Part shown: positions 2,132-3,803 of the stretch, one piece after another
How positions within the stretch are numbered: position 1 is the first letter of the stretch
How the letters are laid out: every line of letters starts with the position of its first letter
Assembly (NCBI RefSeq): GCF_900167905.1
Contig: NZ_FUYZ01000003.1
Location: 124,001-188,000, forward strand
Direction: 5' to 3'
DNA from: Soonwooa buanensis
GTDB lineage: Bacteria > Bacteroidota > Bacteroidia > Flavobacteriales > Weeksellaceae
Length of the DNA stretch: 64,000 bases
Position numbers and translations under genes: made by a program
The notes under the pieces: generated by a model
What the model was told of the DNA's origin: nothing
The model's input: only the letters and a program-made list of their open reading frames with translations
Database searches by the model: none

Positions 2132-2458
2132 ATGAAATATACAGACGAGCAAATTGCAGACATTGGCGATAATATCATCAGAGAATTAAAAACTATTTTC
2201 GATCCCGAAATTCCGGTTGATATTTATGAGTTAGGATTGGTGTATGATGTGCAGATTTCGGATGATGGAGATGTTGTTGTGGTAATGACATTAACGTCGC
2301 CCAATTGTCCTGTTGCAGAATCTTTGCCCATGGAAGTTGAAGAGAAAGTTAAGTCTGTAGAAGGCGTTAATTCTGCCAAAATTAACCTTACTTTCGAACC
2401 TACATGGACAAAGGATATGATGAGCGAAGAAGCACGCTTCGAGCTCGGAATGTTGTAA
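2132..2458 (+). CDS. SufT-like MIP18 family (DUF59) Fe-S assembly protein
   Basis: The 108-residue protein is a single DUF59/MIP18 domain. It carries the family motif around PNCPVAESLP, with the conserved Cys at about residue 58, and the C-terminal motif WTKDMMSEEARFELGML typical of Bacteroidota SUF-associated members. Members help maturation or transfer of Fe-S clusters in the cytosol. The start is one base after the exonuclease stop. The rest of the SUF system is not adjacent, although a SufE-type gene lies 2.8 kb downstream. Assignment to the family is firm; the exact step in cluster transfer is inferred from relatives. Confidence 0.87.
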   Translation: MKYTDEQIADIGDNIIRELKTIFDPEIPVDIYELGLVYDVQISDDGDVVVVMTLTSPNCPVAESLPMEVEEKVKSVEGVNSAKINLTFEPTWTKDMMSEEARFELGML

Positions 2459-2863
2459 TTAATCTTTAAATTCAAACAACATAATCACTTTAATATCTGG
2501 GTTTAGGCTCAGATATACTGGGGAATTATGCGCCGTATCTTCTATAAATTTCTTTTCGTCCGCTGTATAAGCGTGTGGAAATTTGAATACACAGAAGATT
2601 TCTCCAATTCTTCTTGGTTGGAAGTACATTGTCTTTTTCAATTCGCAAGTTGCTCCCGAAATATCGATGTTTCTATCTTTTCCTAAAACGCTAATTGCAG
2701 CAAAAATACTTTGTGCTAAAGACGTTGCAAATAGATCAGTAGGCGAGAAGTTTTCTCTTTTATTAAAAGCATCTTGTGGGATTGCAATATGCATCATATT
2801 GCCAGAATCGTTGTGTAAAGATTCCATAGCATTGTCACCTAAATAAGTAGTTTTTGAAGTCAT
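2459..2863 (-). CDS. OsmC-family protein lacking both catalytic cysteines
   Basis: The 134-residue protein has the OsmC/YhfA fold pattern: SPTDLFATSLA, GATCELKKTM and a C-terminal NPDIKVIMLFEF strand. In active OsmC/Ohr peroxidases one Cys lies in LASC and a second in a CPV motif. Here both positions read Ser: S52 in LAQSIF (codon AGT) and S114 in HNSPVYLSL (codon TCC). The two Cys that are present (C73, C91) are at other places. The reading frame is intact, so the loss looks like functional divergence and not decay. A thiol peroxidase role is therefore unlikely; ligand binding or a structural role is possible. The gene converges with the SufT-like gene with no gap. Confidence 0.8.
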   Translation of the reverse strand: MTSKTTYLGDNAMESLHNDSGNMMHIAIPQDAFNKRENFSPTDLFATSLAQSIFAAISVLGKDRNIDISGATCELKKTMYFQPRRIGEIFCVFKFPHAYTADEKKFIEDTAHNSPVYLSLNPDIKVIMLFEFKD

Positions 2864-2945: not shown

Positions 2946-3803
2946 TTAAAAATGAAATATATCTTTTGCTTTATTGTAAGCACTTTCGAAATTCAACATG
3001 TTTTGATGAATGTCGATTTTTTCTACTGCCATAAAGTTGAAAACCTGTTCTGTAGGCATGTTTCCTACCAAATCATCTTTCGCCATTGGGCAACCGCCAA
3101 TGCCTTTAATAGCACTATCAAATCGAGTACAACCTTGGTCGTAAGCGGCTTTTAGTTTCTTATAAGAATCTTCATAACGATTATGTAGATGCGCTCCAAA
3201 GTTAATATTTGGATATTTTGATGGGATTTTGTTAAATAATAAACTTATTCTGTCAACATCGCCAACACCTGTGGTATCAGACAAAAGAATCTCTTTAATC
3301 CCAACTTCATCAAAACGTTTTGCCCAAAAATCAACATCTTCCCAAGACCAGTTTTCACCATACGGATTTCCAAAAGCCATCGAAAAATATAGATTAAGTT
3401 GGCGACCTTCTTTCTTAGTCAATTCAAAAATTTGAAGAATCTCTTCGAAAGCATCTTCTCGACTTTTATTGGTATTACGATGTTGGAAGGTCTCCGAGAT
3501 AGAAAACGGAAATCCCAGAATATCAACTTTATCGTGTTCTAATGCTTTTTCCGCACCACGAAGATTAGCAACAATAACCGAAAGTTTTGTATTTGAAAGC
3601 GATTTGTCAATTTCGTCAACCATCGTCCCAGAATCTGCCATTTGCGGCATCGTACGAGGATTAACAAAGCTGGCACAATCTAACACGTCGAAGCCAACTT
3701 CCATTAAAGAATTAATGTAATTTATTTTTTTTTCGGTAGGGATAAACTCGCCCCAGCCTTGCATAGCGTCTCTTGGACATTCTGTTAAAAACAGTTTTTT
3801 CAC
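2946..3803 (-). CDS. Hydroxymethylglutaryl-CoA lyase
   Basis: The 285-residue TIM-barrel protein fits HMG-CoA lyase, which splits HMG-CoA into acetyl-CoA and acetoacetate in leucine and ketone metabolism. Visible signature residues are ECPRDAMQ (catalytic Arg11, metal ligand Asp12), the metal-binding HLH pair (H205, H207) and the GIGGCPMA loop with the active-site Cys238. The length is near 300, as in bacterial MvaB-type enzymes. It stands alone, transcribed toward the OsmC-family gene with an 82-base gap and divergent from pepT. Related DRE-TIM metallolyases share the fold, but the Cys loop favours HMG-CoA lyase. Confidence 0.88.
   Translation of the reverse strand: MKKLFLTECPRDAMQGWGEFIPTEKKINYINSLMEVGFDVLDCASFVNPRTMPQMADSGTMVDEIDKSLSNTKLSVIVANLRGAEKALEHDKVDILGFPFSISETFQHRNTNKSREDAFEEILQIFELTKKEGRQLNLYFSMAFGNPYGENWSWEDVDFWAKRFDEVGIKEILLSDTTGVGDVDRISLLFNKIPSKYPNINFGAHLHNRYEDSYKKLKAAYDQGCTRFDSAIKGIGGCPMAKDDLVGNMPTEQVFNFMAVEKIDIHQNMLNFESAYNKAKDIFHF

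What the first reader, a model, noticed from the sequence alone, without database searches (positions are those of the whole stretch)
2459..2863. OsmC-family protein with both redox cysteines changed to serine
The positions that hold the peroxidatic and resolving cysteines in OsmC/Ohr proteins read Ser52 (AGT) and Ser114 (TCC), while the rest of the fold and the frame are intact. Two separate Cys-to-Ser changes in an otherwise sound gene suggest a peroxidase fold kept for a non-redox job, such as ligand binding.
Basis: partly seen in the sequence, partly recalled or inferred. Interest (0 to 1): 0.55.

Follow-up and report, generated by a model that had tools for sequence, protein, structure and literature searches.

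The report
Peroxidase-fold protein without its catalytic cysteine
A small bacterial protein with the fold of a peroxide-destroying enzyme has swapped its essential cysteine for serine, and close relatives have kept that serine under strong selection, so the fold has probably been put to another, still unknown, use.

Summary
Window 2459-2863, minus strand, encodes a 134-aa OsmC-family protein with Ser52 (AGT) and Ser114 (TCC) where the peroxidatic and resolving cysteines stand in its relatives. The two serines are not equivalent. Ser52 is old and fixed: 50 of 50 sequences in two Weeksellaceae clades have it (A: own genus + Epilithonimonas group, 24; B: Kaistella group + Cruoricaptor, 26), with silent codon changes but no amino-acid change. 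Position 114 drifts in clade A (Ser 16, Cys 4, Ala 4; Cys in the sister species) and is Cys in 26 of 26 of clade B. All 158 other relatives inspected keep Cys52. Purifying selection is strong (median dN/dS about 0.06, as in Cys-bearing homologues). The gene lies beside an HMG-CoA-lyase-like gene; 17 genomes also hold an adjacent Cys/Cys copy. It looks like a tandem duplicate that lost peroxidase chemistry and, in clade A, outlived its Cys-bearing twin. Loss of OsmC-type thiol-peroxidase activity is very likely; ligand binding in the retained pocket is the best guess, untested. Strict serine leaves open a working hydroxyl at position 52. New variant of a known kind, moderate interest.

The parts
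2459..2863 (-). OsmC-family (PF02566) gene without the peroxidatic Cys, 134 aa
2708..2710 (-). codon 52 (AGT, Ser) at the peroxidatic Cys position; Ser in 50 of 50 members of clades A and B
2522..2524 (-). codon 114 (TCC, Ser) at the resolving Cys position; Ser 16, Cys 4, Ala 4 of 24 in clade A
2813..2815 (-). codon of His17, invariant in the Ser52 and Cys52 rows inspected
2735..2737 (-). codon of Asp43, invariant in the Ser52 and Cys52 rows inspected, near the start of the helix (41-60) that carries Ser52
2633..2635 (-). codon of Lys77, invariant in the Ser52 and Cys52 rows inspected
2946..3803 (-). HMG-CoA-lyase-like gene, same strand, 82 bases upstream; usual neighbour in the family
2132..2458 (+). 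SUF-associated Fe-S assembly gene, convergent, stop codons abut; usual neighbour in the family

Best explanation
The gene is a diverged copy of a Cys/Cys OsmC-family protein (the 2pn2-like group with FSPTD, His17, Asp43 and Lys77), born by tandem duplication between an HMG-CoA-lyase-like gene and a SUF-associated gene in an ancestor of several Weeksellaceae genera. It lost the peroxidatic Cys52 to Ser and so cannot run the OsmC/Ohr thiol-peroxidase cycle. The protein is kept by purifying selection for a non-redox job, most likely binding a small molecule in the old active-site pocket at the dimer interface, using Ser52 and the conserved polar residues. Shown: Ser52 fixed, position 114 drifting in clade A only, selection, gene order, predicted monomer fold. 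Inferred: duplication and order of events, loss of activity, dimer, pocket use and ligand. The ligand is not known.
For: Ser52 in 24 of 24 clade A and 26 of 26 clade B sequences. Cys52 in 57 of 57 other family rows, 38 of 38 further family rows and 20 of 20 sampled rows from other families of the order, and 43 of 43 distant named loci: 158 of 158. Median NG86 dN/dS for pairs with dS 0.05-1.5: 0.063 (A, 81 pairs), 0.063 (B, 32), 0.053 (Cys/Cys, 110). Codon 52: at least 6 codon changes in A and 11 in B, no amino-acid change. A Cys/Cys copy adjacent in 17 genomes, the order HMGL-like, Cys/Cys, Ser52 seen in the 16 of them covered; in clade A one copy only was matched. Three other OsmC-family genes of the own genome keep both cysteines. 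AlphaFold2 pLDDT 93.8; 2pn2 Z 17.7, rmsd 1.7 over 131. In C. glutamicum Ohr, C60S abolishes activity on cumene hydroperoxide and H2O2 (PMC4486171, passages). Solved Ohr C60S and C60A mutants are titled as interacting with dihydrolipoamide (titles only), so the fold can hold a thiol ligand without the peroxidatic Cys.
Against: No ligand, assay or bound structure is known. 56 of 132 codons in clade A show no amino-acid change, so Ser52 is not exceptional in being invariant. The HMGL-like neighbour is matched in 301 of 320 family genomes but this protein's group in 131 of 320, so adjacency is weak evidence of a shared pathway. One origin of Ser52 is favoured but not proven.
Confidence: 0.5

Rival explanations
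1. Ser52 is itself a working residue: a serine nucleophile or essential hydroxyl, helped by His17 and Asp43, in a hydrolase- or thioesterase-like reaction.
For: Ser is strict in 50 of 50 although the codon changed at least 17 times, including AGY in clade A and Cruoricaptor against TCN in the Kaistella group, while position 114 drifts in clade A. His17 and Asp43 are invariant. A gene of a CoA-ester enzyme family is the neighbour.
Against: His17 and Asp43 are equally invariant in Cys52 relatives, so they did not arise with Ser52. Distances could not be measured. I recall no OsmC-fold serine hydrolase; this was not searched for.
Confidence: 0.17
2. It is a regulatory or structural partner that forms mixed dimers with Cys-bearing OsmC proteins.
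For: In 17 genomes it lies next to a Cys/Cys copy; OsmC and Ohr are active as homodimers (PMC8945050, a figure legend in the passages).
Against: No Cys/Cys twin was matched in the 24 clade A genomes or in 9 Kaistella-group genomes that keep the Ser52 gene. The other OsmC proteins of the own genome are only 15-19% identical to it.
Confidence: 0.1
3. It still does redox chemistry with other cysteines (Cys73, Cys91, or Cys114 where present).
For: Cys73 is in 24 of 24 (A) and 26 of 26 (B); Cys91 in 20 of 24 and 26 of 26. Clade B keeps Cys114 and has a new Cys27 in 26 of 26.
Against: Cys73 (29 of 53) and Cys91 (51 of 53) also occur in the Cys/Cys rows, so they are not replacements; Cys91 is Ala in 4 of 24 clade A members; Cys114 is absent from the query.
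Confidence: 0.08
4. The gene is decaying or the substitutions are sequencing errors.
For: One Epilithonimonas-group gene (L010) stops two codons early.
Against: The same Ser52 in 50 genomes, dN/dS about 0.06, and presence in both own-genus genomes and 22 of 23 g12 genomes; the exception is 73% complete and also lacks the HMGL match.
Confidence: 0.02

Closest known systems
PDB 2pn2 (Psyc_0566, Psychrobacter, putative osmotic stress protein)
   Same: same sequence group: phmmer E 1.8e-21, 37% identity, Z 17.7 over 131 residues, FSPTD motif
   Different: has both cysteines; function not determined in anything seen here
Ohr/OsmC thiol peroxidases
   Same: Pfam PF02566 and fold; Ohr and OsmC structures match at Z about 9 to 12.5
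   Different: both catalytic cysteines absent; the Glu ten residues before the peroxidatic Cys reads Thr42, as in its own Cys-bearing relatives
YhfA class
   Same: described as lacking the Arg/Glu pair and uncharacterised (PMC8945050, passages); 1ml8 (E. coli YhfA by recall) Z 13.7
   Different: YhfA proteins are described there as keeping the two cysteines
Ohr C60S / C60A laboratory mutants with dihydrolipoamide (6ebg, 6ebd)
   Same: Ser or Ala at the peroxidatic position in this fold, titled as interacting with a ligand (titles only)
   Different: engineered, not natural; distant in sequence (15-16% identity)
Francisella FTN_1133
   Same: a protein once linked to peroxide defence that showed no thiol-peroxidase activity (PMC4069020, abstract and outline seen)
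   Different: by that abstract all-alpha and not similar to Ohr/OsmC, so unrelated

Membership tests
Pfam OsmC superfamily (PF02566) | profile score over gathering cut-off | tested here: met
   29.6 against 27.5 bits. Of the 24 clade A genes, 15 reach the cut-off, 7 fall under it and 2 (G232, G233) are not matched at E 0.001.
Pfam OsmC superfamily (PF02566) | OsmC fold | tested here: met
   predicted monomer, pLDDT 93.8; 2pn2 Z 17.7, rmsd 1.7 over 131
OsmC/Ohr thiol peroxidase | peroxidatic Cys in the central helix | tested here: not met
   Ser52; 50 of 50 clade members
OsmC/Ohr thiol peroxidase | resolving Cys | tested here: not met
   Ser114 in the query; Cys in the sister species
OsmC/Ohr thiol peroxidase | catalytic Glu ten residues before the peroxidatic Cys | tested here: not met
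   Thr42; own-genome OsmC L003 has Glu there; Glu51 and Cys61 of the Ohr triad from PMC5962072 passages
OsmC/Ohr thiol peroxidase | catalytic Arg of the loop | tested here: inconclusive
   no alignment of the N-terminal strands with Ohr was made that could place it; Arg36 of clade A is Gly in 53 of 53 Cys/Cys rows
OsmC/Ohr thiol peroxidase | lipoyl- or DTT-dependent peroxidase activity | not testable with these tools
   needs a bench assay
YhfA class | two cysteines kept, Arg/Glu pair lost | tested here: not met
   cysteines lost; Glu position is Thr42; definition from PMC8945050 passages
2pn2-like group | FSP[TS]D, His17, Asp43, Lys77 (my own definition, from these alignments) | tested here: met
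   invariant in the Ser52 and Cys52 rows inspected

The most novel reading that the evidence does not exclude
A natural Cys-to-Ser swap turned a thiol-peroxidase fold into a protein whose serine hydroxyl at the old peroxidatic position does the work, as a nucleophile or as the essential contact for a CoA- or lipoyl-type ligand, together with the ancient His17 and Asp43.
Probability: 0.2. Interest if true: 0.65.

Novelty: new variant of a known kind. Interest (0 to 1): 0.42.

Why it matters
OsmC-family genes are usually annotated as peroxidases or stress proteins. A lineage that lost the peroxidatic cysteine yet stays under strong selection suggests that the fold has a second use, and the tandem Cys/Cys and Ser/Cys pairs of the Kaistella group give a natural side-by-side comparison. 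It also warns against calling peroxide resistance from PF02566 alone. What the uncharacterised 2pn2-like and YhfA-like proteins do is open; a member without the peroxidatic Cys separates binding from catalysis.

Tried and rejected
Two equal Cys-to-Ser changes: rejected, since position 114 is Cys in the sister species and Ser, Cys or Ala elsewhere in clade A.

Catalytic cysteines elsewhere: rejected. All 158 Cys-bearing rows inspected align at 52 and 157 at 114; the exception is L136 with Ser114.

Two independent losses of Cys52: not excluded. For one origin: 100/97 support with columns 13, 45, 52 and 114 removed; Glu18 and Val59 are the usual residues of both clades and occur in none of the 154 other rows counted (53 Cys/Cys, 43 distant, 58), and Lys76, Phe90 and Glu131 are rare there (Lys76 5 of 154; Phe90 1; Glu131 2 of those that reach it); Cruoricaptor, at the base of clade B, uses AGT like clade A. 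Against it: 25 of 26 in clade B use TCN, quick trees without one clade place the other beside different Cys/Cys groups with weak support, 76 and 78, AU tests do not reject separate placements (p 0.09 to 0.17), and the tree tool warned that two long branches meet.

Pathway link to the HMGL-like gene: kept only as a lead; a paper search for OsmC with hydroxymethylglutaryl-CoA lyase found no paper. NCBIfam gave no name for the protein. The first genome-contig scan with the single protein found no relative. Paper searches aimed at OsmC proteins without the cysteines or in these bacteria listed no report of this lineage in the held PMC library; only listings were seen, and subscription papers are not held.

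Rows dropped: L010 from the trees and; L072 and 23 other rows, mostly close relatives of rows kept, from the tree (90 rows left, 46 of them Ser52); L069-L072 from the Cys/Cys column and. Three weak family matches (G059, G114, G116) of 131 were not inspected; 20 of the 119 matches from other families of the order were inspected, chosen by me from the upper part of the list. The family and order searches cut their lists of matches.

Full report
The ORF at 2459-2863 on the minus strand is intact, starts with ATG and encodes 134 aa. It belongs to Pfam OsmC at 29.6 bits against a cut-off of 27.5; NCBIfam names nothing. Its best solved relative by sequence is 2pn2 from Psychrobacter, E 1.8e-21, and that alignment places Ser52 and Ser114 on the two cysteines. 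The codons are AGT and TCC.

Relatives were matched in 131 of 320 genomes of the same family at E 1e-5. I inspected 128 of the 131: 50 carry a Ser52 gene, 17 of them with an adjacent Cys/Cys copy, and 78 carry only Cys52 genes. The other three are weak matches (G059, G114, G116). A scan of a second collection, whose records bear names, kept the best 80 of 95 loci; 37 are Ser52 and 43 are Cys52. The Ser52 loci come from records titled Epilithonimonas, Kaistella, Cruoricaptor, Chryseobacterium sp. or unclassified Weeksellaceae and Flavobacteriia; the Cys52 loci from Bacteroidales, Saprospiraceae and other MAGs. That scan's patterns were made from Ser52 proteins and require Phe45 or the CELKK stretch, so it cannot show how common Cys52 is. 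Of 119 matches from other families of the order I inspected 20; all 20 are Cys52/Cys114.

Clade A (own genus, 2 of 2 genomes; g12, 22 of 23) has Ser52 in 24 of 24 and at position 114 Ser in 16, Cys in 4, Ala in 4. Clade B (25 of 36 g23 genomes and Cruoricaptor) has Ser52 in 26 of 26 and Cys114 in 26 of 26. The sister species of the window has Cys114. The g12 genome without a match is 73% complete and also lacks the HMGL match. The simplest reading is that Cys52 was lost first and position 114 then drifted, in clade A only.

The Ser52 rows form one group with 100/99 support and 100/97 with columns 13, 45, 52 and 114 removed and an outgroup added. Residues Glu18 and Val59, shared by both clades and seen in none of 154 other rows counted, and the AGT codon of Cruoricaptor agree with one origin. 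Against that, clade A uses AGY in 24 of 24 while 25 of 26 in clade B use TCN, the two clades go to different places when the other is left out (weak support), and AU tests do not reject separate placements, p 0.0935, 0.164 and 0.168. I favour one origin but do not regard it as proven.

Selection is strong. NG86 dN/dS, for pairs with dS between 0.05 and 1.5, has medians 0.063 in A (81 pairs), 0.063 in B (32 pairs) and 0.053 in the Cys/Cys set (110 pairs); pairs share ancestry and are not independent. The window against its sister lies outside that range, dN 0.105 and dS 1.80. By parsimony codon 52 changed at least 6 times in A (23 rows, L010 left out) and 11 times in B (26 rows) with no amino-acid change, while codon 114 in A had at least 6 amino-acid changes. 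If codon changes were neutral, six silent changes out of six from AGY would have a chance of about 2e-6 to 2e-4 for transition biases of 1 to 5, a rough figure. But 56 of 132 codons in A and 76 of 132 in B show no amino-acid change, so strictness at 52 shows constraint, not catalysis.

The place is conserved. The usual order in the family is PepT, HMGL-like gene, OsmC-type gene or genes, then convergent SUF-associated gene and exonuclease, with exceptions where genes lie between or the SUF gene is elsewhere. Of the 17 genomes with both copies, 16 were covered and all 16 have the order HMGL-like, Cys/Cys, Ser52. Of the 19 named clade A loci, 18 show the HMGL-like gene directly upstream of a single Ser52 gene; in L097 it does not lie in the stretch fetched. 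Nine Kaistella-group genomes also have the Ser52 gene alone. This reads as tandem duplication followed by loss of one or the other copy. The HMGL-like gene is matched in 301 of 320 genomes at E 1e-80, so it does not depend on this protein; the window's copy is below the NCBIfam cut-off for HMG-CoA lyase, 189 against 246 bits.

The predicted monomer is confident, mean pLDDT 93.8, pTM 0.86, though residues 31-40 average 70. 2pn2 aligns with Z 17.7 and rmsd 1.7 over 131 residues, and Ohr, OsmC and OsmC-like structures follow at Z about 9 to 14. His17, Asp43 and Lys77 are invariant in the Ser52 and Cys52 rows inspected, so they predate the cysteine loss.

Mechanism. In C. glutamicum Ohr the C60S change abolishes activity on both peroxides tested, and C124S abolishes it on cumene hydroperoxide but leaves some on H2O2 (PMC4486171, passages). 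The Ohr triad is Cys, Arg and Glu (PMC5962072, passages); here the Glu position reads Thr42, as it does in Cys-bearing relatives of this group, and YhfA proteins are described as lacking that Arg and Glu while keeping the cysteines (PMC8945050, passages). OsmC-type peroxidase chemistry is therefore very unlikely for this protein. Three other OsmC proteins of the genome keep both cysteines. A working serine hydroxyl is the bolder reading.

In the held PMC library I found no report of an OsmC lineage without the peroxidatic Cys (searches; listings, with passages, abstract or outline of five papers); this does not cover subscription journals.

Noticed in passing
clade B loci, e.g. L043:3317-3715 and L030:1486-1896: Kaistella-group and Cruoricaptor Ser52 proteins have a new Cys27 (26 of 26) and keep Cys114 (26 of 26), so they may have a rewired thiol pair.
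   Followed up: partly
window 2456-2461: Stop codons of the convergent SUF-associated gene and the OsmC-type gene abut with no base between; in the sister species (L006) one base separates them.
   Followed up: no
L010 (G236): The Ser52 gene of one Epilithonimonas-group genome stops two codons early.
   Followed up: no
window 2946-3803: The HMG-CoA-lyase-like gene starts with GTG and scores below the NCBIfam cut-off for HMG-CoA lyase, so its substrate is uncertain.
   Followed up: partly
family genomes, group g6: The Cys/Cys homologue is patchy in the Chryseobacterium group (44 of 173 genomes by my count), while the Ser52 form is in 24 of 25 genomes of own genus and g12.
   Followed up: partly
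L136:4001-4399: A Saccharicrinis MAG homologue has Cys52 but Ser114.
   Followed up: no
L257 (G005): A Cys/Cys homologue in group g3 is split by in-frame stops and looks broken.
   Followed up: no
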